A stretch of 64,000 nt of DNA, taken from NCBI GenBank assembly GCA_037447655.1, contig JBBHKE010001283.1, positions 1 to 64,000 on the forward strand, in the 5' to 3' direction. Positions 7,511 through 50,233 of the stretch are shown here, piece by piece. This DNA comes from Zygnema cylindricum (Eukaryota; Streptophyta; Zygnematophyceae; Zygnematales; Zygnemataceae). Within the stretch, counting starts at the first letter, position 1; each line of letters opens with the position of its first letter. The notes beneath the pieces are model-generated. The model worked only from the letters and a program-made list of their open reading frames with translations. It ran no database searches and was not told where the DNA came from. The position numbers were made by a program, and so were the translations under genes.

Positions 7511-7845
7511 ATGGCTGCCACCAGATTGTTAGCGACAGTGTTGATCTTGGCGTGCCACGTGGCATTCGTAATGGGAGAATACGAAGGACCCATTCTGGAG
7601 CCTGACAGTACGTTTTCCCCTCCTTTCCCCTTCCTTTCCCCACTTCTTGCTGCACGGTCTGCGTCTTCACACGTGCGAAGCATGCATCTGATTGGGTCCT
7701 CTGCCTCGTCTGTCCGTACTTGTGCTGCAGAGTCGGCTCTGGAGGCGGTGAAGGCGGCGATGACGTCCGAGGTCTTCTTCCCAGAAATCAAATGTTCCGA
7801 TTTGTGGTTTTTCCGGTGCGACGATTCCGGTCGCGTGTATTTAGC
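7511..7845 (+). CDS. Exons 1-2: signal peptide and LRR N-terminal cap
   Basis: Exon 1 (7511-7607) begins ATGGCTGCCACC and encodes a hydrophobic leader, with likely cleavage after VMG near residue 22. Its donor GTACGT leaves phase 1. The intron ends TGTGCTGCAG. Exon 2 (7731-7845) reads SALEAVKAAMTS, then a Cys-containing stretch ending CDDSGRVYL, the usual shape of a plant LRR N-cap (two Cys, then Gly-Arg-Val before the first repeat). It ends in phase 2 at GTGAGT and continues in frame at 10607. The minus-strand frame overlapping this block is a shadow. Confidence 0.8.
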
Positions 7846-10800
7846 GTGAGTTACTATCCCTGCGTGCACACCTTGCCGTATCCACTGAATTCCGCACTGA
7901 ATTCCGCACTAAATTCCGCACTGAATTCCGCACTGAATTCCTCAATGAATATCGCACTGAATTCCGCACTAAATTTCACACTGAAATGAATATCGCACTG
8001 AATTCCGCACTGAATATCGTACTGAATTCCGCACTAAGTTCTGCAATGGATCCCTCACCGAATTCCGCATCGAATTCCGCACTGAAACTCGCACTGAATT
8101 CCTTAAAAGGGGAAGAAGGCGAGGGGGGGGGAGAGCAGAAGGATGGGGGAAAATAGGGGGGAGGAAGCCGGAGGATGGGGAGGAGAGGAGGGGGAGCAGA
8201 AGGTTGGGGAGCGGAAGAAGAGGGAGGGGAGCAGAATGGGAGGGAGGGGAAGGGGTGGAAAGGGAAGAGGGGGGGGGAGGGAGAGGAGCGGAGGTGGGAG
8301 TAGGAAACACCGAATGTTGAATCTCGTTAAAGAAAATTGGTAGGGGAAAAGAGAGAAGGAGGTAGAAGGGGAGAAGTGGCAAAAATATGAGGGGAGGGTG
8401 AAATGAGCACTACATTTAGCTCTACATTTAGCTCTACATTCACCACTACTTTTAGCTCTACATTTAGCTCTGCATTTACCACTACTTATAGCTCTACATT
8501 TTGCTCTAGATTCAACACTGCATTTAGGTCTACATTTTGCACTACATTTAGCTCTACATTTACCACTTCTTATAGCTCTACATTTTGCTCTAGATTCAAC
8601 ACTACATTTAGGTCTACATTTTGCACTACATTTAGCTCTACATTTAGCTCTACATTTTGTTCTACATTCAACACTACATTTAGGTCTACATTTAGCTCTA
8701 CATTTAGCTCTAAATTTGCCACTACTCATTGGTCTACATTTTGCTCTAGATTCAACACTACATTTAGGTCTACATTTAGCTCTACATTTAGTTTTACATT
8801 TAGCTCTACAGTTAGCACTACTTTTAGCTCTACGTTTAGCTCGACATTTTGCTCTACATTCAACATTACATTTAGGTCTACATTTTGCACCAAAGTTAGC
8901 ACTACATTTAGCTCTACATTTTGTTCTACATTCAACACTACATTTAGGTCTATATTTTGCACCAAAGTTAGCACTACATTTAGCTCTACATTTTGTTCTA
9001 CATTCAACACTACATTTAGCTCTACATTTAGCTCTACATTTGCCACTAATTATAGCTCTACATTTTGCTCTAGATTCAACACTACATTTAGGTCTACATT
9101 TAGCTCTACATTTAGCACTACATTTAGCTCTACATTTAGTTTTACATTTAGCTCTACATTTAGCACTACTTTTAGCTCTACGTTTAGCTCGACATTTTGC
9201 TCTACATTCAACATTACATTTAGGTCTACATTTTGCACCAAAGTTAGCACTACATTTAGCTCTACATTTTGTTCTACATTCAACACTACATTTAGGTCTA
9301 CATTTAGCACTACATTTAGCTCTACATTTGCCACTAATTATAGCTCTACATTTTGCTCTAGATTCAACACTACATTTAGGTCTACATTTAGCTCTACATT
9401 TAGCACTCCATTTAGCTCTACATTTAGTTTTACATTTAGCTCTACATTTAGCACTACTATTAGCTCTACGTTTAGCTCGACATTTTGCTCTACATTCAAC
9501 ATTACATTTAGGTCTACATTTTGCACCAAAGTTAGCACTACATTTAGCTCTACATTTTGTTCTACATTCAACACTACATTTAGGTCTACATTTAGCACTA
9601 CATTTAGCTCTACATTTACCACTACTTATAGCTCTACATTTTGCTCTAGATTCAACACTACATTTAGGTCTACATTTAGCTCTACATTTAGCACTACATT
9701 TAGCTCTACATTTAGTTTTACATTTAGCTCTACATTTAGCACTGCTTTTAGCTCTACGTTTAGCTCGACATTTTGCTCTACATTCAACACTACATTTAGG
9801 TCTACATTTTGCACCAAAGTTAGAACTACATTTAGCTCTACATTTACCACTACTTATAGCTCTACATTTTGCTCTAGATTCAACACTACATTTAGCTCTA
9901 CATTTACCACTACTTATAGCTCTACATTTTGCTCTAGATTCAACACTACATTTAGGTCTATATTTAGCACTACATTTAGCACTACATTTTGCTGTATACT
10001 TAGCACTACAATTAGCTCTACACTGAGCACTTTATTTAGCTCTTTAATTAGCTCTAGATTTAGCACTACATGTAGCTCTACATTTAGCACTACATTTAGC
10101 ACTACATTTTGCAGTACATTTAGCAGTACATTTAGGTCTACATTTGCTCTACATTTAGCTCTACATTTTTATCGACATTTAGCTCTACGTTTTTATCTAC
10201 ATTTAGCTCTACACTTAGCAATACCTTTAGCACTAATTTCCGCACAAAAACCTGCATTGGATCCGCACTGATAATCACTTTGAACCTACAAATGAATTTC
10301 GCACTAAAATTTGTACAGCATCCGCAGTGAAGTCAGAATTGAATCTAGCACAAAATCTCGCAATGAATATCGCACTAAAATCTGCATATGATCCACATTG
10401 AATTAGATCTAAATCTGCTATATTTGGATTCGATTCTGCTCTTATGCGCTTTGAGACCACTGTGGGGTTAGAGGAATCCATGGGAAAAAGTTAAAAGGAA
10501 AGAGAAGAAAAAAGGAAAGAAACAGAAAAGAAATAAAAGATTGAGAAGGAAAGCGTGAAGATGGCATATATAGTTTTGTGTATTGACAATTAGGGGAGGT
10601 CTGTAGGGAGCTACCCTATATGGAGGGGAGCATTGCTCCGGAGATTGGCAACCTCACACGATTGAAAGCCTTGTGAGTGTAAATTGAGAGAGGAAATGCA
10701 TCTCATATGAAAAGTTTTCATGACACGAAAAATGTTTCTTGTGTTGGTGACTCTTTTCCAAAAGAGATGAAAAATATCAACAATAACTGTTTTCCTTTGC

Positions 10801-13800
10801 AAGTTGTAATGATTGGGGTGGTATATGAAACGGTGGAGATTGTAGGGGTGAAATGACAATGTTTATTGTGATCGAAATTAAATGAGAGTTGACGATTACT
10901 TGAGGAACTTCAAACATTGGAATTTGAATAAGAAATAATGAATTTTTAGATTGGAAATACATGTGGTTTTCCAAAAAAATCGTTTTGATGAGGAAAAACT
11001 TCGTTCTAGAGCGGGGATTCTTTCATTGAAGAGGTGCATTGGTGGGTTCGAAGCGATCACCAGTTTATTACTTAACCACCTTAAAATATTATATTTTGAC
11101 GGAATAGCAGTATGTTGAAAAGGTTGATTTGTTATTTTGTATACTTATTGTTGTTTGATTATGGAAGGTTGTGGGATAAAATGAGGGTGATTTTGGATAA
11201 ATGAAAAAAAATCATTTTCAATACTTTACTTTTTGATTCACGCAAGTAGAGCATAGGCTAATTACATGTATATTGTGTATACCAAGATTGTTATTATTAT
11301 TAAAATCCATTCTTTTTTATGTTAAAGGCATTTGGGATGTTTGGGATGGCTATATGAGGTGTCACAGATATATACATTATAACCAAATGAGTGGAGGCAT
11401 TCCATCATCCATCGGTCAACTAACATCCCTCGAAACATTGTAAGACAAGCTATCGACACATTATCTACCAAGTGAAATTAGTGAATAAGATTGGTACCTT
11501 AGATAATTTTGCCTATAGTTAATGGTCAGAGAGGGTGGGAGCGTGTGAAGCAAGACAAAAAATAATATTATAAAGACCACTAAATAATGACTGTTACTTA
11601 TATTGTTAACCAAGATTGATATCCTATATAGTATTATCTATTTTTAGGGGTCGAGGAAGGGAGAGGAGTTCTAAGCAGGTGAAAGCATAAAATTATAAAG
11701 AATAATAAATAATAATAACAATTAATACTATAAACAAAAAGTATACAATAATAATAATCGATAATCATCAATAGTAATTAAAATGAATAAAAACGGAAGG
11801 AAACGATAAAAATCATCAATTATTATAATTATAAAAATTATCTTCAATAATCAGCAAAAATCAACAATGATTGTAAATAAATAATCTAAATACTTCAAAA
11901 TATTGATTGTAAAATAATTTTTCATCATGTTCATCTTGGTTATAACAATTAATTGTAGAAAATTATGATATTAACTAAAGGCTAATGGTAGTAAAACAAA
12001 AAATCTTTACTACTGATAAATAATACTAGTTACTAAACAATATGAGTTGATGAATAACATTGCTTAGTAACAAGAATGAAACATTAATAAAGATAGCTCT
12101 GAATGAATAATATATAACAAATTGTTTGACTAAAATTTGAGAGGTTTGGGGGTGGGGATGCGAGGTGTCACAGAGATTTATCTTACAACCAATTTAGTGG
12201 AAGCATTCCATCGTCCATGGGTCAACTTAAATCCCTCCAATATTTGTAAGAAATATACAAAAGAAATACAAATTCAGCAAATTGAAACATCCCTCGAAAC
12301 ATAGACAATTTTTTAATAGATAATAATAGAAAAAACAAGAACGATTTTTTAAAAAATATCGTCTATTCTACAGGAAAGGGCGTGAGAGGGCATGCTAATA
12401 AACAAGTGAAATGTAGTGATGATCATAGCAAACTGTTATTTAAAAAAAAAGAAAAAACTAAAGTTTCAACTAATAATAATAAAAAATAACGAGGAAAATA
12501 TTTTATAAAATTAGTAATTAACAAAATTGTAGAACTACAACTAGAATGAATAAAAATAATCAGTCACAAAAATTGATAATAATAATAGCTATATTTAAAA
12601 AGCTAATTGACATAAATATAAATAAATGAAATAAACCGATAACAATAAATCAAATAATATCGATGATAAACATTTAATACTAAAAATTGTTCACAATTTT
12701 AAAAAAAGTAAGGGGTAATCCTAATTAATAATTAATGATACGTAATCAATAATTGATAAAAAAAATCATAAATAATAACTTGAAATTTTGTTGGTTTGTG
12801 GGTGGGATACGAGGTGTCACAGATCTCTCAATAACAACAAGCTGAGTGGAATCATTCCATTCTCCATCGGTCAATGGAAATTTATGAAAGAATTGTAAGA
12901 AAATATATGAGAAATACACATTTTCTAAATTTGAAACGTTTTACAAAACATTGTAAGATACATTTTGTAAAAATAGTGATAGAAAAAAACACAAAACCGT
13001 TCCTTTCAACAATATTATTTTTTATGAATTGTGGATGGGCATAAGCGGGGGGGGGTAAGTAGCCAAGTAAAAACCAGTTATGATCATAACATTTCAATAT
13101 TAAAAAATAAAAAACAACATACTGCAATTAATTTAAATCGATATTGACAAATGATTTAAAATAATTTGTAATGTTAACATCTAATTATAAATAATAACAA
13201 GGAATAAATGAAAATGGTAATTTTTAAAATCAATAAAATCAATAAAATCAAACAGTGGTAATAACTAATCATACTAATTAGTAATTTATAAACAAAAACA
13301 AATAAAATATACCAATAATAAATTAGTAATATTTATTAGTAAAACTGATTTTAACAATAAAAACAATCGTGACTAGTAATGCTAATTAATAATTAAATAA
13401 AAGGTATTAACTAATCGTAAAACATAGACGATATTTAAAATTCATTAGTAACAATAATAAAGAAGTTTGGGATAAGGAGTTTGAGAGGATTGGGGATGGG
13501 GATGCGATTTGCCACAGAGATTTATCTAACAACCAATTTAGTGGAAGCATTCCATCGTCCATCGTTCAACTAAAGTCCCTCGAAATATTGTAAGAAACAT
13601 ACAGGAGAAAAACAAATTTTACAACTTTGAAACATCCCTCAAAACATTGTAAGACACATTTTGTAGTAGACAATAATAAAAAGCAAAAACGAACCTTAAA
13701 AAAAATTGTCTATTCTACGGAGCAGGGCGTGAGAGCAGTAGAAATAAGCAAGTGAAAAGTAGTTATGATCATGAAAATTATCTCTTAAAAAAAAAAAAAC

Positions 13801-16800
13801 TAATGCTACAACTAATTATAATCAATATAATTCAAAGAAAGAAATATTCTAAAAATACTGGTTATTATTTAAACTGTAAAATGAATAAATAGTAACCATA
13901 TTAAGTAAAATAAAAAAAAAGAATAAAAAATAATAATGGATAATAATAATAACTATTTACTAGAATCTTATTTAGATAAATATGAATAAATAAAAGAAAC
14001 CGTCAGCAGGAAAGTAATCAATATTGATGATGAATAGTTAATAGTAAAAATTAACTACAACAATCATAAATCACAGTAACTGGTAATCCTTATTAGAAAT
14101 TTTTAATACGTGATTAATAGTTATTTGAAACATCATAGATAGTAAATATACGATAAATAAAAAAAGAAACTTCATAGTCAGCCATGAGTATTTAATGATT
14201 AGCATTAGTAAATCTTACAAATGGGTGATAATAAAAAAGCCATTAATGGCTTGGGAGGTTTGTGGGTGGGGATATGAGGCGTCACAGATTTATAGAAAAA
14301 AACCAGTTGAGTGGAAGCATTCCATCGTCCATCGGTCAGCTGACATCCCTCCAAGCCATGTAAGAATCATAAGAGAAATACACATTTTCCAAATTTGAAA
14401 TGTCCGACAAACCATTGTAAGGCACATTTTGTAAAAATAGTAACACAAAAGAACAAACCTTTTCTTTGAACAAGATAATCTATTATGAATTGTGGATGGG
14501 CATGGGCGGGTGGGTAATAAGTAAAAACCAGTTATGATCATAACAATTTAAAATTAAAAGATGAATAAAAAAAGGAACAACATGCTACAACTAATTTAAA
14601 ATGATGTTGACAAAGATTTAAAAAAAATTGCTGTGTTAAGATTTTATTATTAATAGAATCATGAAAATCAATCAGGGTAATAACTGATTGTACTAGTTAG
14701 TAATTTATAAATACAAATAAGTAATATAAACCGATAATAAATTACTAGTAAATATCGATGATAAATATTAATCAGTAAAAACGGATTATAACGATTAAAA
14801 ATAATAGTAACAAGTAATGCTATTTAATAACTTAACAATAGGTATTAACTAATCATAAAACATAGATGATAGTAAAAATTCATTTATAACTATAACAAGC
14901 AATTTTTAGAAAAGGAGTTTGAGAGGATTGTGGATGGGGATGCGAGTTTTCACAGATGGCTACATAATAACCAGCTGAGTGGAAGCATTCCATCATCCAT
15001 CGGTCAACTGACGTCCCTCCAAACATTGTAAGAAATATACAGGAGAATTTTTTTTTTTACAGCTTTGAAACATCCCTCAAAACATTGTAAGACAGATTTG
15101 TAGTAGATAATAAGAAAATATAATAAAAGTGACCCGTTAAGAGTTATTGCCTATCTCCCTAGGTAGGGTTGTGGATGAGGGGTGGACGACGGTCAAGTGA
15201 AAACTGGATATTTTCTGAACAATTTTATGCATGATAAATACAAAACAAATCGTATTATAATCAATTTTAATTAATGTTGACAAATGATTCAATTTAATAA
15301 TATCACTAATTAGTTGCAAAAAATAACAATAAATAAATGGTAATAGCAATAAGTAAAATTAATAGGAATAGTCATTATTAAGAATTTGATAACTGTTAGA
15401 ATTCCGCAGATCCGGAATTCGGCGTGTCTTGAACGGCAACCTTTTTCCAATTCAATAAAAAAAGTAACAACTAATAAAAAGGAAAATCAACCGATATTAA
15501 ATTATTATTTATAATACTGATGATAAATATAGAACACTAGAAATAAATCACAGCATTAAAAAAAAAATAACTAACAATGCTAAGCAATAATCAATCAGTA
15601 GTGTTGGGTATCGGGTAAATTCATATCGCGATAGTTTCGATATTCGATATATCGAATATCGATCGAGCAGAATCCTCGATATATCGTAGCTGGACCAACA
15701 TCAACTATCACGATATATATCGCGATATATAGTATTTTTTTAAATTTAATATTTAATATTTTTATATAATATGCTATTTTAGTGAAAAAGGCAAATTGTC
15801 TGATACGCCACATACGACGTGATTTTTGTTCGTACGACGTGATTTTCGTTCCGTGACTTAAAGGCAGACGCCGCAAAATTTAACCGACAAAAAAATACTT
15901 ATTCTGTAATTCATATAATTACTCATTTGGGGTATGGTTACATCAGGAGGTCTCTGTAATAGTACGGACAGCAAAATTTCTGTATTACAGAAGCCTCGGT
16001 TACATCGCGTATCGTCTGTAAACAAGTTTTTACATACGTGTTTTGATTTGAGTGGTTCATTGTAAGTTGACGATCAAATCTCTAAAATCGTCAAAGATTT
16101 AAAAACCGACCATTTTCGTATAGAAATCCGTACTTGCGTATTAAGTACGTGTACTTCACAATGTACCTCAGAGATCTCCTTCACTCTGCTGACTTTCAGG
16201 AAAAAACCGTGTTGACTTTCAAGAAAAAACCGTATTTCTTTTGGGCAAAGATTTTACGGTCACCTTGTCCAAAGGCACGTGATTTTGGAGACCTGTAACA
16301 ATTTTCATTTTTTTTTTTTTAAATGCCTCGATATATCGGCGAAACGATATATCGGCGATATATTGCGATGTTTTGATTTTCGATATATCGAAGCATATAG
16401 GGTACCTGAAATTCGATATATATGTCGAATATCGGCAAAAGGTCCTCGATACCCAACACTATCAATCAGTAATATTTATTTAACAGGAAAAATGAAAAAA
16501 AAAAAATAAAAAAAATCATTATTAACAATAATAAGCTTGTTTGAATAACAAAAGTTTGGGAGGTTTGGGGGAGCGGATGCGAGGTGTCACAGATGGCTAC
16601 AAAATAACAAGTTGAGTGGAAGCATTCCATCGTCCATCGGTCAAATGACATTCCTCCAATACTTGTAAGAAATATAAGAGAAATGCACATTTCTACTTAC
16701 TGGAGACATCCCTTGAAATCTCTTACGATACATCACTTATATACTAGATAGATAAACAATTTAATCAATAATAATAAAATATAAGCTAAAAAATGAAATA

Positions 16801-19800
16801 AATAAGATTGATAATTTAGCAATTATGATTCTCATATGCGGGTGGAACAAAATATAGGGAAGAATGGGGGGGGGGTTTTAATTAACTGAAAATTGGGTTT
16901 CAACTCTTTCTTGGTTTTTTATTATAGTGCATTATGATGTTTGCTGTTTGCTTTATTACTAGTATTTTTATATGTTTTCCCATAATACGAAAATGTTATT
17001 TTAAAATAAAAAAAGCTTATATTAGAACTGATCATATTTAATGTTGAAAATTAAACAAAATACTTCATTCTATCAGTATGCCAATTAAACCTTTCTCATT
17101 CCCGTAATTGTAGTTTGTTTGTGGAATATCTATCTGGTCAAAAAGCTAAATTGATTTATTTACTTTTACAAAAAAAACGATAAATTTAATTCTTGTAAGA
17201 CTGATAGGGAATTGAAGCAGTTTTTCTCTTAGTAAATACTTCAAATTAATGGCGGAAACACGTTTTCGTAGACCAATAAGCGCAGTATTGGATAAAAAAA
17301 AATAGTACGTGTTGCATACGTCATATCTTACATTTGTTTGTTGTGAACTTGCAACTGGCGTTGAGTATAAAACTGGGTATTGGTGAGGATGTCACAGAGA
17401 CGTATCTGGCAACCAGTTGAGTGGAAAAATTCCATCGTCCATCGGTCAATTGAGACTTCTCAAGAGATTGTAAGAAGCATTTCGTTTGAATATATGTTTT
17501 TTCTCGATGTTTAGATACTAAATATTAAATGAATAATGTTTCATTTAAAGTGAGAGGGCCAAAAAAGGTGAGGCTGGTGTGAGAACCGATAGGTTTTTAT
17601 GCAATCAAAACATTAATTATGAACATTTAAGTGATTTTAATTTAGATTAATTTAGTTTTTAAGCAAAATTTCAAAAATATAAACTTGTGGGCTTGTATGT
17701 CATTGTAATCTGAGCAAACCAGTATATGCTCTCCCTGTTCGCTTCTTCTCTTTGAGCTCTTTCCCCACGCCTATCCCAGGTTTTTCTCCTACCCGCACAA
17801 TCCTCTTGCACTCACTTGTTCCTCCCTCGCCCTCTCCCTTTCAAAATTCAAAAAAATGAATAACCCACTTAGTAGTTGAAAGAAAGGTTGTAAACAACAC
17901 ACATTACGTAAAGTTATAATCTACTGGTGGCACCACACGCTTGGGGAAAACAATTAGATTTTTTTTTTCACTTAATTTAAATTTGAAAACGAGCAAATGT
18001 CAGTTATAGGAATAATAATAATGAACCTCATAAACAAAAAAAGCCATTGGAAGCGTGTGGAAGCCATATAAACAACTGTATTATTTCGTACATCTCAAAG
18101 TTGATGCTACAAGAAGGTTCAGAGTAGACTAGGAGTCTATGTTATTTTTTTTTTTATAACATCCTCTATGTCGGTTCCAAAGTTTTACACCATGAAGGTT
18201 TAGTTTTTGTAACGATACGTTTCCATATCAGTTCCAAAATTTCACAACAGGGATTCTTTTTCAAATCCCTAAAACAGGAATTGAATTGTGCTCTTGAATT
18301 TGATATTTTCTCATATGCCTTTGTGCAGGTCATTGAAAGATAACCTTTTGAGTGGGCTAATATCGTTCCCGCTAGATTACTGGGCATGGGTGCCTCAATT
18401 TGACTTTAGAAATAACTTTCTTTCCGGTTCTGCAATAGTGTATCAACATACACCAAATGTTTGCAACGTAACTATTGGGAACTGCTTCAATGACGACGAC
18501 CCTTTGCTGAAAAACTGTTCTTCAAACGGACAAAGAAACAAATCCCTGTGTTTGCAGTTTTGTAATGCTTCTCAACCAATGGGTGCATGTGGCGGCCACG
18601 GCATCTGTCCTGGTTTGAATAAATCTTGCATATGCGATGCTGACTATTTCACAGATATAAGTTTCAACAACACATGTAATTTCAGTAAGTCTCGACACTA
18701 TCCACGCTAATTGATATGGTCTTTGCTTTTCGCTTATGTGCCCCTTCCCACACCCAAATTAAAAAAATTGCGCCACCAATGTTACACCATATTCTGGGCA
18801 TTGTGAATTTTTGTCAACATGATGGATGCTAATCAATATGCAGTTTCTTTTTCATAACAACATACCGTCTATATTTATGGCAATGTATGTGTAGACGAAC
18901 CAGAAAAATGTAGTTTATGGGCTATAATAGCTTTTTTGCCACAACAAGCCTCTTAAAGTATTCACAACGAGTGATTTGAAACTCAGATAGGGTGAGGCCA
19001 AGTTAATGTAGGCCAAGTTAATGTATGGCTGTATAATGCCCGTTATTCATTATAGCTTGAGTTGGTGATTCATTATAGCTTGAGTTGGTGACAGAATTTT
19101 TGAAACTCTTGGCCCTCAGAGTAGGCAGATCCAAAGAAGCTAATCTAGATAGTGCTGACTCCTAACTTGATATAAACCCAAATGACTGACCCCTTGACAG
19201 TCAGAACCCTAATATAGATTCACCTCGTGGAATAACACTTTCTGTGTGCTCAGTTCCACCACAGAATGCAAAGTTAGAATATGAGATTCGGACACATTTA
19301 CCCACTTTGACTTTCCCTTAAAAATGCAGCCACTCCGGCAGACAAAAACTCTGACCGACTACACCCCTGTGTAGCCTAGACTCCCCTGAGTCCGCAGCAA
19401 AAAGAATCACTGAAAATGGTCAAGTAAATTGATAGTTATGGCTGGCCAAAGTTTACCATTTATACAAGGTGCTCTCTGGGAGAGGCAGCAATCTACCCAA
19501 AATTTTCTAAGTCCTATTCCCCCTCTAAAACTCTATCTACTGAAGTTCGGCACCAATCAAATTACTGTGTCGTACAGAAAAGTACAGGTGCCGGTTTACG
19601 ACATGGCCAAAATGTCGACATGTGTCAAATCAGGATTAGTTCTTGTAATCTCAAGAATTCCCGTAATCCAATGTTATCACGCCACGTGTCATCTGACGTG
19701 GCAAAGACCGTAAAACGCCAAAAGTACTATTTCCGTGATCGCGGCGCCTATCGCGGCCGTTCGATCAAAACCGGCTATAATCCTAGCCGCTGAAATTCGA

Positions 19801-22800
19801 CGCGCGGTATTTGTTTCGCCATCGAAACAAATGCGCGGTATCCGTTCTGTCCCCATACCGTATTTCGTACTAAATCAAACTGTATCTATGCACTAAGTAT
19901 CTATTCGCCGTTAAACGAATTAATCTACATGTAACGATTTAAATATTTATCAAACCCTATATATCGTAATATGTTTCCTAGACTTAACGGTTAGAGCTAA
20001 CGGCTAATGCAACTTGACGGACGGCAGGTACCAGGATCAATTCCTGGGTCAGTCAAGTAACTTTTAGTAAACCTATCTAATCCACCCCCTGTCTTCTCTA
20101 GTGAGCTTTAGGCAGCCATGGCTCTAGCTCCCTATCAAGCCTTCAGTGACTACAACAAGTGTGGGGGCTTCTCATCTAATCCACCCCCTGTCTTCTCTAG
20201 TGAGCTTTAGGCAACCATGGCTCTAGCTCCCTATCAAGCCTTCAGTGACTACAAGTGTGGGGGCTTGGAGAAGGGAGTCAGGGATAGACTGCCTTTGCTC
20301 TTTTTTTATAAAGACCTAGAAAATACTCAAATATCAACAATTTTATTGGGTTGCCATTGCCTCAAACATAAATTAGTGTTTTAAGATCGTGCATCAAAAT
20401 GCTGAAATCGTGTGATATGTCCAAAGTATAGTTCATTTTAGCAAATCTCATGATGTTTTCAAATTGTAGAGCCATCAACTTTAGCTGCGTACGAGATCTC
20501 TACATTGTTAAGTGATCACGTTGTCAGGCACTAAGCTTCCTTTTAACTTAGTGGCTCATCGTAACCACAAATAACTTTGGAGGTTTTAACTTAGTGGCTC
20601 ATCGTAACCACAAATAACTTTGGAGGTATTATAGGGACAGCGATGTGCAAATACATGCTTTTTGATGCCTGACTTAACCTTCGATTCTTATTCTTCTGAT
20701 GAATTTTGCAGAATCTCGTGGAATGGGATTATTAACACCGCCGCGAAAATTGTCCAAAAAAACAAATCAGTTTTTTCGTTACGCAAGTTCTGGATTTTTG
20801 TATTCTAAGGATAAGAAACCAACATGGATGGTGGCGACCTCATGGAATTGGACTGCTCAACTACCTAGCAGCAAAGCCAAAGATCAATCTAGCTGCAGTA
20901 AATGCCCAAAACTCATTGAATTTATTTTACTTTGAAGAAATAATGTGGAAATTAACTCTTTGGTTTTCTCTCGGCAAATGAAATTCCGTTCATGATTTTT
21001 ATGTTCATTTGCACACTAACGTAGCAAAACCACACTATGCTAATAGATTACAATTCAAGATGGTTAATTTCTTTTGTAATTTTTTTTGCGATGTGTAGAT
21101 ACATGCTGGATAATTTCTGCTTTCACTGCCATTGAACATGCTTATTACATTGCAAACGCGGGAACGCAACCACTCCCTGACTTTCCAGCCAGGCAAATGC
21201 TTAATTGCACCAAAATTAACTGTGCTAGAGGAGGTTGGCCAAACGAAGCGTTTGATTACGCAGCAAACACAGGTCTTTTACCATCAAAAAGATTCACGAA
21301 TGAAAGTACCTGCAAATTGGTCAATGTAAGTCAATGTTTATATTTTCCAAATATCCTCACTCGTGTTCTTTCTCCTATCTCTTTCAATTTTTAGGGTTTC
21401 CTTGTATGTATTTTACTCTCGCTTTCCTTTTTCTTTCTTCAATGCTTAAATGAGATATCTTGTGACCAGACAATTGATGACGATGCTTCCAAATATCTTT
21501 CACGTACTCCGTGTCTCCTCTTTTTTTTCTTTTTGACTTTAGTTTTCTTTTTTATCTTTCGCATACCTGGTTCTCCCTATCGCTCACTTTTCTTCAGCGT
21601 ATATATCCTGTAATTACTTTATTTAAATTCTTCACGTACTTCTAAAGCATTATATTCATGGTCTAATTTTTCAACTCTTAATCTAAGTACCCTGTGATTA
21701 CATTTTGAAAATTCGTCACATCCTTTTACAATATAACATTCGTGGTCTGATGATTTTGCAGAAATTAAACGGAATACAAATTTTATCATATGATAGAATT
21801 CGAATGAATGGCTGGAGTGGCCTCTTATTGGCACTTCAACAGCAGCCAGCTGTGGTGGCTATCGAGGCCAGCTCTTATGCTTTCAACAATTATAATCCTA
21901 AATTAGTGAGCACCTGTACCAAGTTTTAAATTTTTATAATCTACAGATGCCGTTTGGAAATATTTCAACGATGTCAAACCAACTTGAAATCGCTGCTGCA
22001 AGCTGTTTCAAATGCTGTTAAAATCACTGGGCTATCCTCAGGTTCAATGTGTCAAATTTCAAAGGTTCGTTTTGTGCATATTTAAGATCTAATTTTACAT
22101 GGTACACAATTATTTTGCTGTAACACGCATGTGTTTGGGATTGGTGCAGGGTGTCTTTGATGACGAGACTTGCTTCTCAAACGGGGTGGACCATGCGGTG
22201 TTAGTCGTTGGTTACGATTTGACAGCTGAGACGCCATATTGGCTCATTCAAAATTCATGGGGAGTCAATTGGGGGGATAAAGGATACATGCGTCTTAAAA
22301 TATCAAGTGGTTATGGGATTTGCGGAATCAATACTCAACCAGCTATTATACCAATAATGAAGCCCAAACGTAAGTTCGGTAAAAAACATGTATTCTGCTC
22401 AAATTTTGTGTGACTCAAAAATTATATGTAAGAGCAGCTGGCTATTATCATAGATGCTAGTTTGTGAATTAAATGAGTGATCATAAAATGCGATTGATTT
22501 TTTTGCAAATACCGTGGTAGGAGGTCACCGTGTTGATCTGTACGATTTTTTTTCTTTTTTTTTCTCCTCTTGGACATTTCAGTTGGTGATCTGTGCAACG
22601 TCAAAAATTTTGCACAAATACAACAGAATGCAACTATTGGTCCTGGAAGCATGAACCCATGTGGCAACGGTTTATGTACTTCAAACAACAAAACATATAC
22701 CTGTAAATGTATGGATCAATTTGTAGCCGTTACCAACACGGACGGAACACAAACTTGCGCTCCAGGTGAGAAACATTTTCTATTTTTAAACTTTGTTTTC

Positions 22801-25731
22801 AAGCATGTGGAAATTCTTTCATTTGTAACTAAAAAAATGTTTTTGAGATTCTAAGATTTTTTTCAATGGGCAAGATTGATTAAACACCAGAGTACGGGAT
22901 GTGTATGCACAATGATGAATATGTCCAGTTTTAAAAGCATCGGCTAAAATGTTTGAAATTCTGCATATATTTTGGTGGATTTGGAAACGCATTTGTTCTT
23001 CTTTTTTGGTTTTTTTGGTTATACAGTACCGCACAATGCACGTTGTTTATTGGAAATGATTGCACTGTTGATAGTGGAACACAATCTAAAGGTCACGCTA
23101 ACTCATGAACAATCCTCCATATTCCATATAGCTCTTTTTCCAGATCGATCACCCTTTAGTTTTTTGGTGGCGTGGACTTGCTTTGTTTAAAACGTAACTT
23201 GTCAATTGTATTCAAGTGGTTCAAGATTTTAAATGGCCTCGACTCTTTTTTTGTTTTGTCTAGCCTCTCCATGTACCTTCACATCGCGCAATCCTTGTGG
23301 AATGGGAACTTGCGTGGACTCTAAGGACAAACCGGGAACATACGCCTGCGTTTGTTTGATTGGATATGCCGCGGACGATTCAGACGGTTCTCTCTCATGT
23401 GTTCCAGGTGGGTTCTGTTTACTTTCGTCTTATTGCACGAAGTTGATTAGAAAATTCAGTCTTTCAAGTGATAAAATCAAATACGAATGTGATCATTTAC
23501 GTATTTCTAAAACTCTAAGTAGAGAATCATATTCGATCAAATTTTGTACAAATCCAACCTCAAAAGGCACAAAGTTCCAGTGCGGACACTTCAACTGTCT
23601 TGGAGAGATTCATGTTCCCGAAACTTTACATTTATTCAAGGTTAATCAAGGGTTCAAAACTAATGAGCATTTCACGGTCTCTGTTCCTTCAATAAATCAC
23701 AAGTTTTATTGTGCTATGGAAAATCATAAGGAAATTCACATTAGCATACATCCATGTCCATGCACGTTGTTAAAAATGATATTGCAGATTTCATATGTTG
23801 AATCAATGCCACATGTAAATGCATGACGTAAATTTGTGGCAATGCTAACGTGAAACACTTTCTTGATTATTAAAACGATATTGTAAGTTTTTTTTGATGC
23901 CCACCAATGTTTTCACTTCAACCTTGTTTTTCTCTTCATGGTTTATTTTGTTTCAGCCGCCGCTACATTAGGAGCAAAGGAATATATTGTGCCAGTTGGT
24001 GGATCTATTTCTTGCTCGACTATCTTCAACACATATGGCATCTCACAACAAATCTTTTTAGAACAAAACAAGGTTTTATTTCTACCACTTTTATTGCCAT
24101 GTAGCTCAGCGTATATACCGTCAAACACCTGGTTTTCCTCTTCGATGACTGCAGCAATTATCAATATCAATTATTTTTTTGGAAAGGGAAGGGTGCAATG
24201 GCAACGGTCCTTTTTTGCCTAGATGTATGGTATAATGTTGGCCTAACACCATTACGGAAGTGCATTTGGGTTGAGCTCCAGAACTTGAATTGTAGCCAGC
24301 TTCTCCCAAAAGGTGCCAAAGTTAATGTCACCAACTCCATAGAATGTTCCCTAATTTACGCAGCGGAAGAGGTAATTTTACGTTCTTGTGAACCATACAC
24401 TTCTTTTTTTTATCCAATTTCATTTACAAGTGCTTACATCTTTTGAGCGTTGATGCAACCCTTTTTTTCTTCCTAGAGTGGGTTTAGCTACTGGGCCCAT
24501 TATTTTGGTCTTCTAAAAAAGCAATTCCATTTGAGTATTTAATTACTTTAAATAGCTAATCAAAGCAAAAGGGGACTTTCCAGGGCGATACGTGTGATTC
24601 TATAAAGTTTACGTTACAACTCGAGCAGAACTTCGAACTCGAAGGCCCAGATTCTCCAAATCCGAGCTTGAACTGCTCAAATTTGAAACCATATCAACAG
24701 GTAGTTTTGGAATACCTTAACCCTACATTTGAAAATCTGGATGCACGAATGGACATAAACAGAAAGTGCATTGGAATTTCCCTTAATCTCTGACAAGTTG
24801 TATACTGCTGTGTTAACATCAAAATGTCACTTGGACATCCAAAATTACTAATTTTTTTGTTGTATGCGTTTGGAAAATAAATCTATCTTTGCTAGATATG
24901 CATTACCAAGGGAGATTTACCATTTCATGGACCCTGTACCCGTCCATATAGCATTAAGCGGGGGGATACGTGCCCAACCATTATTCGTGAATATATGGAT
25001 GGAGACGTGACAAAATTCTATTCCCTAAACCCTGGTGTGTATTGTGGTCGTATCCGGTTATATTCCGACGTTGACAACACCTTTCAGCAAGAGGTGAGAA
25101 GAATTCCAAAACATTAACATTCACCTAAGCATTAACATTCATCTGACTTTTTAATGTCCAATCCATAACAAATAACTGTTCTTTTAAAACGTACAAATTT
25201 CATGAATTGTCTTTTTAAGATGATTGACAAAAGGTTTTCCGCATTCATACTTGCGATTTGCACGTTTATTAGATAACATACTTCGTGATTAGGCGTGACA
25301 GATTACTATCATGGATGTGAGAGTACTATGGTTTTTGCGACCTCCTTTTGTAAATATTTTGGCCCTTTGTGGTTGCCTTTTGTCTTTAAACTAGGGTTCG
25401 TAATTTCTCTTGCACAAAGTCTATCTATTGTGGCTCATAATGTTCACAATGGGGGTTGTGTCTCTTGTGCCTCCAGGTTTGCTTAGACACTGTGGACCTT
25501 GGAGGTGCAACAGCAGGATGCAGCGGGACAGCTGTCACATTGGCAACCTCGCACAACTGCAACATGTTGACAACCACTTACTTCAAAGATGATCCTAAGT
25601 CAAAAATCATACCTGCATCCTTTCGCACTTTAAATAAGTTCGCATGTACCGACACTGCACTTGACACTATACGTGCGAAGGCCAAAAGCGCCAAAACAAC
25701 TCCTAAAATTTGTACTCCAAAACTGAAATGA
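7511..25731 (+). CDS. Secreted LRR - EGF - papain-like peptidase - EGF - LysM protein (23 exons, 1029 residues)
   Basis: My exon model is 7511-7607, 7731-7845, 10607-10672, eight 72-bp exons (11368, 12174, 12823, 13518, 14288, 14956, 16593 and 17398, each +71), 18329-18684, 20712-20897, 21099-21325, 21762-21905, 22150-22369, 22583-22765, 23264-23407, 23957-24072, 24282-24371, 24584-24700, 24896-25093 and 25477-25731. The lengths sum to 3090 bases with every junction in phase, every intron GT...AG and no internal stop. Domains: signal peptide 1-22, LRR N-cap to ~70, LRRs ~71-320, EGF-like region to ~403, C1A peptidase ~443-655, EGF-like ~663-771, LysM-like ~772-1029. There is no membrane segment or kinase, so it is probably apoplastic. 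Least certain are the acceptor at 24282 (24276 also works in phase) and whether all exons share one transcript. The combined function is inferred only. Confidence 0.8.
7883..8103. repeat. Degenerate 12-bp tandem repeat (CTGAATTCCGCA)
   Basis: About 18 imperfect copies of CTGAATTCCGCA lie in intron 2 of the LRR/peptidase gene. Related degenerate units recur at about 10265-10400, on the other side of the large minisatellite. A purine-rich block follows (8104-8400). Confidence 0.8.
8104..8400. repeat. G/A-rich low-complexity tract
   Basis: Strongly purine-biased DNA on the + strand (runs of GGGGAGG and GGAAGAAG) inside intron 2. Frames across it are compositional artefacts. Confidence 0.8.
8403..10260. 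repeat. 12-bp minisatellite with 288-bp higher-order periodicity
   Basis: The 1.86-kb array is built from variants of TTTAGCTCTACA. Successive blocks repeat at 288 bp (24 monomers): the same variant series starts at about 9050, 9338 and 9626. Since 12 is a multiple of 3, several frames on both strands stay open for hundreds of codons, including a 622-codon Ser/Thr/Phe frame, and I do not regard these as genes. It sits in intron 2, between the LRR N-cap exon and the first LRR exon. Confidence 0.9.
10607..17469 (+). CDS. Exons 3-11: array of single-LRR exons
   Basis: Exon 3 (66 bp, 10607-10672) encodes the first repeat, containing GSIAPEIGNLTRLKA. Eight exons of exactly 72 bp follow, each a 24-residue plant-type LRR of the form LxLxNNQLSGSIPSSIGQLTSL. 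Each begins after (G)TCACAG and ends before GTAAG in phase 2, so every junction splits a codon (mostly Leu) as two bases plus one. Spacing between exon starts is about 650-810 bp, apart from one gap enlarged by the hAT element at 15599. Repeats at 12823 and 17398 are the most diverged (for example SGKIPSSIGQLRLL). Such LRRs usually form a ligand-binding solenoid. The ligand is unknown. Confidence 0.85.
15599..16461. mobile_element. hAT-like element, 863 bp, with 8-bp target duplication TCAATCAG
   Basis: Terminal inverted repeats TAGTGTTGGGTATCG and CGATACCCAACACTA are flanked by direct repeats TCAATCAG (15591-15598 and 16462-16469). Its subterminal regions are packed with palindromic CGATATATCG-type motifs. 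It lies in the intron between the LRR exons at 14956 and 16593 and has no coding capacity. A truncated relative ends at about 38535. Confidence 0.9.
18329..18684 (+). CDS. Exon 12: LRR C-terminal end and EGF-like cysteine-rich region
   Basis: The exon completes the split Leu codon from exon 11 and starts with a partial LRR containing DNLLSG, then FDFRNNFLSG. A Cys-rich segment with several possible N-glycosylation sites follows (CNVTIGNC, NCSSNG, FCNAS). It closes with CGGHGICPGLNKSCICD, which has the spacing of an EGF-like module. It ends in phase 1 before GTAAGT and joins the peptidase exon at 20712. Confidence 0.8.
19101..20339 (-). mobile_element. Solo LTR of the copia family (1239 bp) in the EGF/peptidase intron
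   Basis: On the minus strand it starts TGTTGATATTTGAG and ends GAGTTTCA. Flanking 5-bp direct repeats ATTTT (19096-19100 and 20340-20344) mark the target duplication. A ~110-bp internal direct repeat is present (about 20080-20260). It matches the LTRs at 46305-47473, 58987-60178 and 62067-63305. No internal retrotransposon sequence remains, so it probably arose by LTR-LTR recombination. Confidence 0.9.
20712..22369 (+). CDS. Exons 13-16: papain-like (C1A) cysteine peptidase domain
   Basis: Four exons encode about 210 residues of C1A fold. The oxyanion Gln is Q462 in KDQSSCNTCW and the nucleophile is C468 in CNTCW (family norm CGSCW). The catalytic His is H604 in VDHAVLVVGY and the Asn is N624 in IQNSWGVNWGDKGYMRL. 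The second disulfide region is present (MLNCTKINC, then GGWPNEAFDY). Departures from the family are CNTCWII in place of CGSCWAF and the absence of a recognisable I29 inhibitory propeptide: only about 60 residues separate the EGF-like module from Gln462. The four active-site residues are present, so activity is plausible but unproven. In a secretory protein it would act in the wall or vacuolar route. Confidence 0.85.
22583..23407 (+). CDS. Exons 17-18: two EGF-like modules
   Basis: Exon 17 (22583-22765) encodes a Cys-rich unit with NPCGNGLCTSNNKTYTCKC and ends TCAP. Exon 18 (23264-23407) encodes SPCTFTSRNPCGMGTCVDSK, then YACVCLIGYAADDSDGSLSC. Both have the CxNGxC...CxC pattern of EGF-like domains, and both are bounded by phase-1 introns, typical of shuffled EGF exons. 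They separate the peptidase from the LysM region. An apparently longer reading frame from exon 18 to 23826 is intron read-through. Confidence 0.8.
23957..25731 (+). CDS. Exons 19-23: LysM-like modules and C-terminus
   Basis: Exons 19-20 read EYIVPVGGSISCSTIFNTYG, then ISQQIFLEQN and LNCSQLLPKGAKV, matching the LysM layout (YxVxxGDxxxxIxxxxgis...N.....L.pGq). Exons 20-21 give a second unit with EGDTCDSIKF, NPSLNCSNLKPYQQ and ICI. Exon 22 gives a third, with YSIKRGDTCPTIIREY and LNPGVYCG. The last exon (25477-25731) ends in a Lys-rich tail and TGA and does not look like another LysM. LysM domains bind chitin- or peptidoglycan-type GlcNAc polymers. The first unit has GGS in place of GDT, so ligand binding may vary among units. 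Confidence 0.75.
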
Positions 25732-31605: not shown

Positions 31606-34600
31606 ATGACGGCAACTCACGCAAACCGGCAGTCAAAAATGCACGGTTTGGCTCCTATGGTGCCGGCAAAAATTGTGACGGATAGAACCACGTTTCCGAG
31701 AGATCTCGAGTCACGTCTTCAGCAAGCCTGGTTACAAGCTTTACAGCCATCCAATGCAACAAAAACTGAAACTAAAACTGAAACTAACGGAAAAAACGGG
31801 AGCTCAGGACCACAGAAACTACCAAAGGAAACGGTTTCAAGAGATACTGCTCCAGCGGCCAGTAGCCACAGTAATAATAACCGGTCTTCAGGTCAGTTTT
31901 TGTCGTCTTTTTTTGTTTTTATTGTCTTTTTTGTTCATCGAATCATTTACTGTGGGAAACGTGACTGGTTGTGTTAAAAAGGCTTTTTGCTTCAAACAGG
32001 GAGATGATGTCTCTAATTGTCAAATTTTTATTAGGAAACTGTTTGTACATTGACAATCTGATTGCTATATTCACACAATGGAGGACTATCTACCATCAAT
32101 AACTTCTGAAATGTGAGAATATATTTTACCTGTGAAACCCTTACCAATTTTAAAGCTGACCCTAAACCTAGCCCTAACACCCTAATTCTAACCTAACCCT
32201 AACCCTAGCCCTAACCCTAATCTTAACCCTAATCCTAAACTTAGTCCTAGCCCGAACACTCTATTCCTAACCCAAGCCCTAGCCCTAACCCTAACCCTAG
32301 TTCTAGCCCTAACCGTAACTCTAACCCTAGCTGGTTTTAAAATGGAGACCTATTGGAGCTTAAATGAAGACATGTTGGTTTGTCGTTTTCTAAAAATTGT
32401 AAAATGGATTTTTTTTTTTTTTTTTGCTGTTTTTATTTTATTTGTTTATTTATTTTAGGTTCCAAAACCCGAGCATATTCTTTATTGTGTTTCTTTTCCC
32501 TTCTGTTTTCATATTTTTTCTGTTTTCGTCTTTAGATAGGCAGAGGAGAGGCGGGGAGAAAGGGAGAAGGAGAGAGGGAGGGGGAAGTGGGAGAGGTGGA
32601 GAGGTGGAGAGGGGGAGAGGGGCGTGGGGTTTATATCAATGTTATTAACTCTTAACTGATTTCAAACCTTTTAAAGAGTTAGCGTTAAGAAATAAACCTT
32701 TTTGTCGTTGATACTACTCTAGGTTCTAGAAGTAAAATTCAGGGGCACCAATATAGTGTCATTGTCACTAATAACGATACCCTTTATCTCATTTCATTTT
32801 GAGCCCATTGACATTCACCTCAATTTACCACTCTAGTTTCAGGATGGCAATATAGCAATTTTTATGTGATCTATTTCCTACCCCAGTTTACAAACGTTTC
32901 CTCGTTCAATCTCTTTCTCATTTCCTCATAAATGCCTCTTCCGTTTTTTTTTTCAAGTTAGAAACAAGTTGAAAACCTCAGTTCTTCTTAGTTTATCTGA
33001 CATCGGAAAAACTCATTGCTATCGCCAACGGATCGTATTTGCTTCTTAAACATTGTTTATCCTTTTCATTCTCTGAGATGAAGTTATCAAATTTTGTGTT
33101 TTGAGGAAAGGTTGATTCAATTTCTCTTTTTACGTAAATGCTGTTATGTTATTGTGTCAGTACAGAAGAAGAAATGCATAACATAAGTCTTAATACATCA
33201 TGTGAAAACTGTTCACCCGTATTTGACGCAAAGTTAAGTGAATTCCATAACTCCGCTTGTAACTCCTCATGTTTTTTGGTTCACAGATACCCGATCCCAT
33301 GGGCTAAAGAGGGTTCGATCTGTAAACGCTGGAGACCGTGGAGGAAGTTCACAGGATCTCACAAATACTTTACAAAGTCTTTGGATGAGGACACAGGTAG
33401 ATTCTGCAGAAAGGAGCGCTTATTCTCATCTCCCTGATCTTTCAAACGCAACCGGCGGATCGACCAATCCCCTTGTAACGGAGGAAGAACAGAGACAAGT
33501 AAGAAGGGTAACGGCAGATAGAGCTGTCATGGGTGACAGTGCTAACTCGCCAATACCAGATAAACCTCATCAAGAAGTTGCATACGAAAACAGTTTTTTT
33601 CGAGAGACGGAAGTCGAGGAAACGAGTTCGTTTGTTGAAGAGGATTTTTTTAGAGGTTTAGAGGGTTTGCAGGATGCGTTTTCGGAGATGGAGCAACTTT
33701 TGAATGGAGGGAATGATCTTTCAGAAGTTGCTGTGGATAAGGAGCAATACGTTTCCACAGATGAATCTGATGGGATAGGTAAAATATCTCAGGGTCTCAC
33801 TACTGGCCATGAATTATTGGATTCAGAAGGAGAAGAAGACCTCTTTAACGAATACCTGAGGGAAAATGGGATTGAACAGCCTTACACAGCCCTTGAATTG
33901 CTCAATGCTAATAATAATAATGAGGAGGCACCCACAGAAAGATCTGGAGACTCATATTTGACTTTGGAAGAGTTACATGCCAAAGAATCTTTGGCAAAGA
34001 TCACCAAGGAATGTGACAGGAAGAAAGCAATAGGCAGTAAGGTCGCGATTGAAAAGTCTCAGAATGGAAGTACTGATGGTAGTCAAAGAAAGGAAGAGAT
34101 TTATCAGCAAGCTAGTGGTTCCGCCATCGAACTACTCATTGAAATCGCTAAAGCAATTGTTTCAGAAGACCAATCGAAAGTCAACGAGTTGTTGAAGAAA
34201 CTTAACGAAGTTGCCTCGGTTTACGGCGATGCTCAGCAGCGTCTTTCGGCATATTTTCTCGAAGGGTTTATTGCAAGAATGTCGGGACACAAATCGGATG
34301 GGAAATCCCAGGTATCTCTGGAAGGCTGTTCTTCTGGTTGTTCTCAGGAAGGATATTCTTTTGCGGATGAAAGCAGTACAGTGGGAGTTAAAGGAAACGA
34401 TAGCTCTTCTTCTTGTAAACAAGATGTGAAACACTTGTTGGAGGCTTTTGAGGTCAGTATATTGCCATCCAGTATCTATGTGTAGTTTGAAATTTTCTTG
34501 TTTCACCTATTGTGTTTTGTAACGTTTTCATGTTCTTTTACTGGGGAGTGTGGGAGATTTGAATCTTTTTTCATGGTTTTGGCGAAAGTTTCTCAGCTTT

Positions 34601-49465: not shown

Positions 49466-50233
49466 ACAGCGCATTTGTTTTAACCACGAAACAAATACCG
49501 CGCACCCATTTTCAACGGTTACAATTAAATTCGATTTTGATCAAACGGCCGCGATAGGCATCGCGATCACGGAATATGTAGTTTTGGCGTTTTATGGTCA
49601 TTGCCACCTCGAGTGACACGTGGCGTGACAACGTTGAATTGTGCCAACTCCGGGGATTAGCGGAACAAATCCCGATTTGACACGTGTCAACATTTTGGCC
49701 ATGTTGTACGATGTCTGTACAGAAAGTACATCGATACCTGTACTTTTTGGTACGACTCAATAATTTGATTGGTGCCGCATGTCAATAGACAGAGTTTTAG
49801 AGAGGGAATAGGACTTAGAAAATTTAGTAGGTAGCAGCCTCTCTCCGAGAGAGCTCTTGTACAAAAGGTCATCTTTGCCCATTCATAACTATCAATTTAC
49901 TTGACCATTTTCAGTGATTCTTTTTGCTGCAGACTAAGGGGAGTCCATGCTACACAGGGGTGTAGTCGGTTAGAGTTTTTGTCTGCCAGGGTGGCTGCAT
50001 TTTTAAGGGAAGTCAAAGTGGGTGAATGTGTCGAAAACTCATATTCTAACTTTGTATAATGTGGTGGAACTGAGCACACAGAAAATCTTATTTCACATGG
50101 GTGAAGCTATAATGGGTTTCTGATTGTCAAGGGGTTTGTCATTTTGGTTTATATCAAATTGGAGTTACCACTATCTAGATTAACTTCTTTTGGATCTGCG
50201 ATTTCTATGGGCAATGGAGCACTCAAACTTTCA
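49466..50233 (+). mobile_element. 5'-truncated copia LTR next to gag-pol
   Basis: It begins at the internal GCATTTGTTT...GAAACAAATACCGCG motif shared by all LTR copies and ends CAAACTTTCA directly before GGTTATGG of the gag region. It is therefore the remaining 3' part of the 5' LTR of the degenerate element that follows. Confidence 0.75.

What the first reader, a model, noticed from the sequence alone, without database searches (positions are those of the whole stretch)
7511..25731. LRR - EGF - papain peptidase - EGF - LysM fusion in one secreted protein
Twenty-three exons join in consistent phase into 1029 codons with no stop. The model links a signal peptide and LRR array to a cysteine peptidase with Gln462, Cys468, His604 and Asn624, flanked by EGF-like modules and followed by LysM-like modules. 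Each domain family is well known in plants. I know of no described protein combining them. By inference, LysM and LRR parts could deliver an extracellular protease to a glycan-bearing target such as a microbe or wall. The chance agreement of all exon phases is small, but splicing between the LRR half and the peptidase half rests on one intron that carries a solo LTR.
Basis: partly seen in the sequence, partly recalled or inferred. Interest (0 to 1): 0.93.

Follow-up and report, generated by a model that had tools for sequence, protein, structure and literature searches.

The report
Algal LRR–papain–LysM secreted protease family
An alga that appears to belong to the group closest to land plants carries a large, apparently undescribed family of secreted proteins that join a diversified recognition module, a papain-type protein-cutting enzyme and sugar-binding LysM modules, which looks like a recognition-guided protease repertoire.

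Summary
The 23-exon, 1029-codon model is reproduced exactly: 22 GT–AG introns, agreeing phases, Gln462, Cys468, His604 and Asn624 in place. Pfam finds LRR, Peptidase_C1 (6.6e-40) and LysM; EGF is below its cut-off and rests on cysteine pattern and homology.

It belongs to a large family. In this genome 49 of 73 LysM-exon matches have a C1 match upstream on the same strand within 15 kb, 0.23 expected. Related proteins occur in Closterium and Mesotaenium; the N-terminal module varies (LRR, legume lectin, both, EGF) over a recurrent C1–EGF–LysM core.

All LRRs but the first are single 72-nt phase-2 exons. Five concave-surface positions are the most variable, while scaffold and C1 are constrained. 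I read it as an extracellular, recognition-targeted cysteine protease, most likely defensive. Structure and family are shown; function is inferred.

The parts
7511..7607 (+). exon 1: start codon and signal peptide (MAATRLLATVLILACHVAFVMG)
   Evidence: counterpart exon in second gene
7731..7845 (+). exon 2: LRR N-terminal cap
   Evidence: counterpart in L028 and second gene
10607..10672 (+). exon 3: first LRR (66 nt)
   Evidence: counterpart of 72 nt in second gene
11368..11439 (+). LRR exon, 72 nt, phase 2
12174..12245 (+). LRR exon, 72 nt, phase 2
12823..12894 (+). LRR exon, 72 nt, phase 2
13518..13589 (+). LRR exon, 72 nt, phase 2
14288..14359 (+). LRR exon, 72 nt, phase 2
14956..15027 (+). 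LRR exon, 72 nt, phase 2
16593..16664 (+). LRR exon, 72 nt, phase 2
17398..17469 (+). LRR exon, 72 nt, phase 2 (last full repeat exon)
18329..18684 (+). end of LRR array plus EGF1-like module
   Evidence: EGF1 found upstream of C1 in 15 of 17 close own-genome loci
19101..20339 (.). solo LTR inside the EGF1-C1 intron (TG...CA; ATTTT at 19096-19100 and 20340-20344)
   Evidence: sequence; absent from the same intron in L015, L023, L026
20712..20897 (+). C1 exon a: short conserved pre-domain segment (GLLTP...FFRYASSGFLYS) and Gln462
21099..21325 (+). C1 exon b: catalytic Cys468
21762..21905 (+). C1 exon c
22150..22369 (+). C1 exon d: His604 and Asn624
22583..22765 (+). EGF2-like module
23264..23407 (+). 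EGF3-like module
23957..24072 (+). LysM region, exon A
24282..24371 (+). LysM region, exon B
24584..24700 (+). LysM region, exon C (second LysM-like repeat)
24896..25093 (+). LysM region, exon D (best Pfam LysM stretch)
25477..25731 (+). exon E: degenerate fourth LysM-like repeat, C-terminus and stop
   Evidence: aligns to the last LysM of P0001; no Pfam hit alone

Best explanation
The locus is one 23-exon gene for a secreted multi-module cysteine protease: signal peptide, LRR array, EGF1, a papain-type (C1A) peptidase without an I29 propeptide, two EGF-like modules, and three LysM-like repeats plus a fourth degenerate one. SHOWN by sequence: the architecture, the intact catalytic residues, purifying selection on the C1, EGF and LysM parts, membership in a large own-genome family with relatives in other Zygnematophyceae, change of the N-terminal module (LRR, legume lectin, both, EGF) over a recurrent C1-EGF-LysM core, and variability concentrated on the concave LRR surface. 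INFERRED: the protein acts outside the cell, in mucilage or wall; the LysM end docks on a GlcNAc-containing glycan; the LRR end gives each paralogue its own target; binding brings or switches on the protease, with the short conserved segment before C1 acting as a minimal propeptide. Tandem LRR exons of one length and phase plus recombination between paralogues would create new specificities. The most likely use is defence against parasites or microbes.
Against: No transcript, protein, ligand, substrate or activity of this gene is shown. The LRR variability test is pairwise counting on non-independent exons near saturation; its bootstrap interval includes 1, and concave sites vary in many LRR proteins. 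The identical 3.1-kb block could be an assembly artefact. In part of the Closterium relatives the catalytic Cys is Ser, so not every member need be a protease. Own copies are not all sound: L012 and L028 lack EGF1; exons without a stop-free GT-AG match occur in L012, L013, L014, L015 (last exon) and L020 (EGF3); L018 has Cys-Arg in place of Cys-Trp. LysM specificity and a defence role rest on knowledge of the families only.
Confidence: 0.6

Rival explanations
1. Two neighbouring genes (an LRR-EGF protein and a C1-EGF-LysM protease) wrongly joined across the LTR-bearing intron.
For: C1-EGF-LysM proteins without LRR exist (P0004, P0005, P0007, P0010), so the 3' half can stand alone. L028 has no LRR or EGF1 exon found before C1.
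Against: In 12 own loci with both exons placed, EGF1 and C1 lie in order on one strand 562-874 bp apart; three paralogues carry this intron without the LTR; a complete 22-exon second gene; P0001 and P0009 run through the junction in one frame. No promoter or terminator test was made.
Confidence: 0.03
2. A real fusion family whose role is housekeeping: turnover of the alga's own mucilage or wall proteins, nutrient digestion, or processing of wall proteins, with LysM and LRR as wall anchors.
For: An LRR-extensin-like protein and cysteine proteases are listed in a Penium secretome (PMC6027541, passages seen). LysM and LRR can bind self glycans or peptides (general knowledge).
Against: Many diverged paralogues, changing N-terminal modules and variability concentrated on the LRR concave surface are not expected of one housekeeping enzyme.
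Confidence: 0.22
3. A cell-cell or mating recognition system (conjugation, self/non-self, species recognition) in which paralogues mark identity and the protease processes a partner-surface protein.
For: Zygnematophyceae mate by conjugation, and recognition genes diversify in the same way (general knowledge). Same variability and module-change data.
Against: Nothing here ties the family to sex, and LysM is not known to me as a mating module.
Confidence: 0.13
4. Mostly decayed or pseudogenic copies, the window gene included, with no function.
For: Some copies are damaged or truncated: L012 lacks its 5' part; exons without a stop-free GT-AG match in L012, L013, L014, L015 and L020.
Against: Intact 1029-codon frame, an intact second gene, dN/dS well below 1 for C1 and EGF parts, catalytic residues kept in 13 of 13 copies whose C1 exons could all be read.
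Confidence: 0.02

Closest known systems
Plant papain-like cysteine proteases (C1A; ficin, actinidin, bromelain, RD21 type)
   Different: No I29 propeptide and no granulin in the Pfam scan; instead an LRR array in front and EGF-LysM behind
Plant LRR receptor-like proteins and receptor kinases (MIK2, FLS2, HAESA ectodomains)
   Same: LxGxIP-type LRRs with N-terminal cap; best structural matches of the P0009 LRR part
   Different: No kinase in Pfam and no transmembrane-like stretch; carries its own protease
Plant LysM proteins (CERK1/LYK and LYM type; recalled)
   Same: Several LysM repeats in a secreted protein
   Different: Joined to EGF-like modules and a protease; neither kinase nor membrane anchor
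Brown-algal ROCO genes with one LRR per 72-bp phase-2 exon (PMC11378527, passages seen)
   Same: The same 72-nt phase-2 LRR exon design, and change concentrated on the concave face
   Different: Those encode LRR-ROC-COR GTPases; here the LRRs sit on a secreted protease, in a different lineage
Animal recognition proteases such as MASPs and horseshoe-crab Factor C (recalled, no call)
   Same: Works-like idea: recognition modules, EGF-like modules and a protease in one secreted protein
   Different: Serine proteases with CUB, CCP or C-type lectin modules; no homology claimed
Lectin_legB combinations in Zygnema (Feng et al. 2024, PMC11096116, passages seen)
   Same: Reports 26 Lectin_legB domain architectures, often lineage-specific; legume lectin occurs on this C1-EGF-LysM core in related proteins
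   Different: Main text has 0 occurrences of LysM or protease, and none of the peptidase passages shown to me (12 of 21 places) concerns C1; supplements not read

Membership tests
C1A papain-like peptidase | Peptidase_C1 domain above curated cut-off | tested here: met
   138 bits against 20.7, E 6.6e-40
C1A papain-like peptidase | oxyanion Gln, catalytic Cys, His, Asn in order | tested here: met
   Q462, C468, H604, N624; the same four in 13 of 13 own copies whose C1 exons could all be read
C1A papain-like peptidase | I29 inhibitor propeptide | tested here: not met
   not among Pfam matches at E <= 1; 0 of 66 related proteins with LRR, lectin or LysM list PF08246 (tally of Pfam columns). C1A enzymes with short propeptides exist (recalled: cathepsin X)
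C1A papain-like peptidase | proteolytic activity | not testable with these tools
   none
LysM protein | LysM domain above curated cut-off | tested here: met
   23.6 bits whole protein and 39.2 bits on the C-terminal part, cut-off 20.9
LysM protein | binds GlcNAc glycans | not testable with these tools
   none
EGF-like modules | EGF Pfam model above cut-off | tested here: not met
   PF00008 19.8 bits against 21.5 on EGF2-EGF3; over the cut-off in homologues P0001 (22.0), P0053 (30.4) and P0010 (38.8). Called EGF-like from cysteine pattern and homology only
LRR receptor-like protein or kinase | plant-type LRR array | tested here: met
   LRR_1 2.5e-33, LRR_8 5.1e-26
LRR receptor-like protein or kinase | transmembrane segment or kinase | tested here: not met
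   no kinase in Pfam; no 19-residue window above 1.1 on the Kyte-Doolittle scale starting after residue 30; no dedicated transmembrane predictor was run
Exon-shuffled LRR receptors of brown algae (ROCO) | one LRR per 72-nt phase-2 exon | tested here: met
   8 such exons in the window, 46 distinct in all; design described in PMC11378527
Exon-shuffled LRR receptors of brown algae (ROCO) | ROC-COR GTPase domain | tested here: not met
   not among Pfam matches
Exon-shuffled LRR receptors of brown algae (ROCO) | alternative splicing of LRR exons | not testable with these tools
   no reads available
Granulin-type plant cysteine proteases (RD21 group) | C-terminal granulin domain | tested here: not met
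   no granulin match at E <= 1

The most novel reading that the evidence does not exclude
Zygnematophyceae, the sister group of land plants, hold an expanded, germ-line-diversified repertoire of secreted recognition proteases: interchangeable LRR and lectin sensors, one LRR per exchangeable exon, recombined between paralogues, wired to a papain effector and a LysM glycan anchor. It would be an extracellular immune system in which sensor and weapon are one soluble molecule, with no counterpart that I know of in land plants.
Probability: 0.35. Interest if true: 0.93.

Novelty: new variant of a known kind. Interest (0 to 1): 0.82.

Why it matters
Plant immunity is told as membrane receptors plus intracellular NLRs, with apoplastic proteases as separate actors (general knowledge). 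[quoted passage not shown] The repeat-per-exon LRR design would be a second algal case beside the brown-algal ROCO genes.

Tried and rejected
Two-gene reading: rejected on paralogue introns, a complete second gene and homologues from Trinity-named records. Copy counting by the C1 profile alone: 150 matches scored of 303 candidates, of which 104 span profile positions like this family's His/Asn exon. I do not use 104 as a copy number, because C1 alone is not diagnostic. A genome-wide pairing of EGF1 with C1 could not be done, as the tool stayed busy. In one search the absence of EGF or LysM rows is not read as evidence, because C1 fills the list. No legume-lectin hit was seen in L001–L028 with two lectin queries, nor in L001–L029 with four or in L030–L033 with two; no conclusion is drawn for the rest of the genome. 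Penium and Mougeotia papers list cysteine proteases and LRR proteins, but the passages seen name no fusion. A search for chytrid defence in Zygnematophyceae (listing only) gave nothing on this family.

Rows dropped before counts: own-genome loci were taken in rank order, skipping C209 (two places), C1949 and the window itself, plus four of lower rank, so the sample is not random; L001–L008 repeat places of L009–L015 and are not counted. dN/dS medians use only pairs with at least 60 codons of equal exon length and dS between 0.05 and 1.2. LRR exons were taken by a pattern (72 nt between AG and GT[AG], no stop, an N-x-[FLMVI]-x-G-x-[IVL] core), so irregular repeats, including the window's own 66-nt first repeat, are missed. 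LysM pairing used the 73 listed matches to the third LysM exon; the list was itself cut short, and 147 of 451 candidates had been scored. One search scored only the 7994 candidates sharing most words.
Full report
WHAT IS THERE. Order of parts: signal peptide, LRR cap, one 66-nt and eight 72-nt LRR exons, an exon ending the LRRs and carrying EGF1, four C1 exons, EGF2, EGF3, five exons for three LysM-like repeats plus a degenerate fourth. Pfam: Peptidase_C1 6.6e-40, LRR_1 2.5e-33, LysM 5e-05 (7e-10 on the C-terminal part alone, two stretches); EGF below its cut-off, so 'EGF-like' rests on cysteine pattern and on homologues that do pass (P0001, P0053 and P0010). There is no I29 propeptide, granulin or kinase in that scan and no transmembrane-like stretch by hydropathy; 45 cysteines after residue 22 and 15 N-glycosylation sequons fit secretion. 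The closest solved structures by sequence are ficin, FBSB and chymopapain.

IS IT ONE GENE? The doubt was the intron 18685–20711. It holds a solo LTR at 19101–20339 (TG…CA, ATTTT on both sides; my reading). Three own-genome paralogues (L015, L023, L026) align to both sides of this intron without the insert, so intron and exon order appear older than the LTR. In the 12 loci with both exons placed, EGF1 and C1 are 562–874 bp apart on one strand. A neighbouring stretch was added to L023 to read a complete second gene (C1662:26118 to 11693): 22 exons, 1006 codons, 84.5% identical overall and 89.3% from the LRR end onward, same order, one LRR fewer; the splice sites of its cap and first LRR were chosen among four stop-free options. 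Outside this genome, proteins from EukProt entries with Trinity names, P0001 (1178 aa; 39% over 960 columns in a single alignment) and P0009 (1041 aa), have LRR, C1 and LysM in one frame; that they are transcript assemblies is read from the name. P0010 and P0011 lie on contigs of 2241 and 1664 bases that leave no room for such introns, so I take them for cDNA (inference).

THE FAMILY IN THIS GENOME. I read 24 loci around C1 matches (20 in rank order with the skips told in Tried and rejected; four of lower rank). Seventeen of the first 20 are close relatives with C1, EGF2 and EGF3; one (L024) is a distant C1–EGF–LysM; two (L009, L010) showed only C1. EGF1 lies upstream in 15 of the 17, and LysM hits lie inside the fetched stretch in 13 of 17. 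All four lower-ranked loci have C1 followed by EGF; LysM was hit in one. Genome-wide, 73 listed matches to the third LysM exon were paired with the 150 scored C1 matches: 49 have a C1 upstream on the same strand within 15 kb, with 48 distinct partners; none has C1 downstream on the same strand; two have one on the other strand within 15 kb; 0.23 would be expected by chance. Both lists were capped, so 48 is a lower bound for the matches paired and not a full count. The 13 copies whose four C1 exons could all be read keep the four catalytic residues; L018 has Arg for Trp after the Cys. Not all copies are sound: exons without a stop-free GT–AG match occur in L012, L013, L014, L015 and L020.

THE FAMILY ELSEWHERE. 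Among 107 proteins returned by three searches of 5.8 billion (candidates limited by length and shared words), 66 list LRR, legume lectin or LysM beside C1, 34 with LRR, 24 with LysM, 11 with LRR and LysM together, and none with I29 (tally of the listed Pfam columns). Those of the 66 with a named source are Closterium or Mesotaenium (JGI code Mesen1, read from memory); the rest are unnamed EukProt or contig entries. N-termini by my Pfam scans: LRR (P0001, P0009, P0053, P0057), LRR plus legume lectin (P0002, P0003), a partial or two legume lectins (P0050, P0051), EGF-like (P0010), no Pfam domain (P0004, P0005, P0007). In a 40-row tree the lectin proteins P0050/P0051 group with the LRR protein P0001 (92/72) and with P0009 (98/93), so the front module changes over a stable core; several branches are long and some joins unsure. 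Part of the Closterium proteins have Ser for the catalytic Cys, for example P0002, P0015, P0065, P0077 and P0079. The Closterium proteins are gene predictions; P0004 also carries EF-hands that may belong to a neighbour.

SELECTION AND RECOMBINATION. Median NG86 dN/dS between own copies: EGF1 exon 0.29 (37 pairs), C1 0.20 (118), EGF2-3 0.19 (118), LysM 0.41 (53; range up to 1.12). In 46 distinct 72-nt LRR exons the five most variable sites are 22, 23, 1, 3 and 4, the exposed positions of the LxxLxLxxN strand (strand assignment from general LRR knowledge); their pN/pS is 1.11 (bootstrap 0.97–1.30) against 0.47 (0.42–0.53) for the other 18 sites. For the last LRR exon alone (16 loci) dN/dS is 1.34 against 0.44. 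These are pairwise counts on related exons, so they point to, but do not prove, diversifying selection. L018 and L022, on different contigs, are identical over 3,114 bp spanning two LRR exons and most of the EGF1 exon, while 150-base bins in the flanking introns are about 0.5–0.8 identical (whole introns 0.66–0.81 after it): gene conversion or crossover, unless an assembly error. Near-identical segments of 400 bp or more were seen for three pairs among the loci compared.

HOW IT PROBABLY WORKS. Shown: architecture, conservation, family, variable LRR face, changing front modules. Inferred: secretion into the mucilage or wall; LysM anchoring on GlcNAc glycans; LRR choosing a protein or peptide target; protease held back by the short pre-segment and released or concentrated on binding. 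I rate defence above housekeeping or mating because of the copy number, module changes and concave-face variability; no experiment decides it.

COMPARISON AND NOVELTY. Every part is of a known family. The 72-nt phase-2 LRR exon design with concave diversification is known from brown-algal ROCO genes (PMC11378527, passages seen; Zambounis et al. 2012 as cited there). Feng et al. 2024 (PMC11096116, passages seen) report 26 Lectin_legB architectures in Zygnema and 209 domain combinations unique to Zygnematophyceae; their main text has no occurrence of LysM or protease. The bioRxiv version (passages), a domain-evolution paper (PMC11289646, passages), a papain classification (PMC10318531, passages) and library searches (listings) showed no description of this family in what I saw; supplements were not read, and most subscription papers are not in the library. 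Animal recognition proteases (MASP, Factor C; recalled) are the nearest works-like idea. I therefore file it as a new variant of a known kind, with a more radical reading left open.

ORIGIN. The 352.8-Mb, 2689-contig assembly, the relatives above and a GRAS gene in the window fit a zygnematophycean alga. Feng et al. list Zygnema cf. cylindricum at 359.8 Mb in 3,587 pieces, which is similar in size but no identification.

Noticed in passing
window 7846-10606: Intron 2 holds about 1.9 kb of short tandem repeats (CTACATTTAGCTCTACATTT...) that are open in more than one frame (622-aa and 436-aa ORFs); the 622-aa one has no Pfam match.
   Followed up: partly
window 33238-36355: Three ORF pieces on the + strand together match a GRAS-domain regulator (PF03514, E 1.3e-09, 2.4e-29, 2.4e-45), probably one intron-containing gene.
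   Followed up: partly
window 50190-53417 and 61559-62086: Copia-type retroelement pieces (RVT_2 E 1e-70 at 52362-53414); the ORF at 61559-62086 on the other strand resembles that of 50190-50588 by eye.
   Followed up: partly
P0002, P0003, P0015, P0065, P0067, P0075-P0077, P0079, P0088, P0091 (Closterium): Catalytic Cys aligned to Ser in part of the Closterium LRR/lectin-C1 proteins, while His and Asn stay: inactive scaffolds or altered nucleophiles.
   Followed up: partly
L018 643-3757 against L022: 3,114 identical bases in two loci on different contigs, diverged on both sides.
   Followed up: yes
L028 2457-4670: Paralogue with signal-peptide and LRR-cap exons followed by C1 with no LRR or EGF1 exon found between; by exon lengths a direct splice from cap to C1 would break the frame.
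   Followed up: partly
L012 and L026: 98.5% identical over 3.7 kb from the C1c exon through the LysM exons, but L012 has no recognisable 5' half.
   Followed up: no
window 15600-16460: An LRR intron contains an element with inverted ends (AGTGTTGGGTATCG at 15600, CGATACCCAACACT ending at 16460), flanked by ATCAATCAGT on both sides, full of TATCGATATATCG-type motifs; looks like a DNA transposon relic (read by eye).
   Followed up: no
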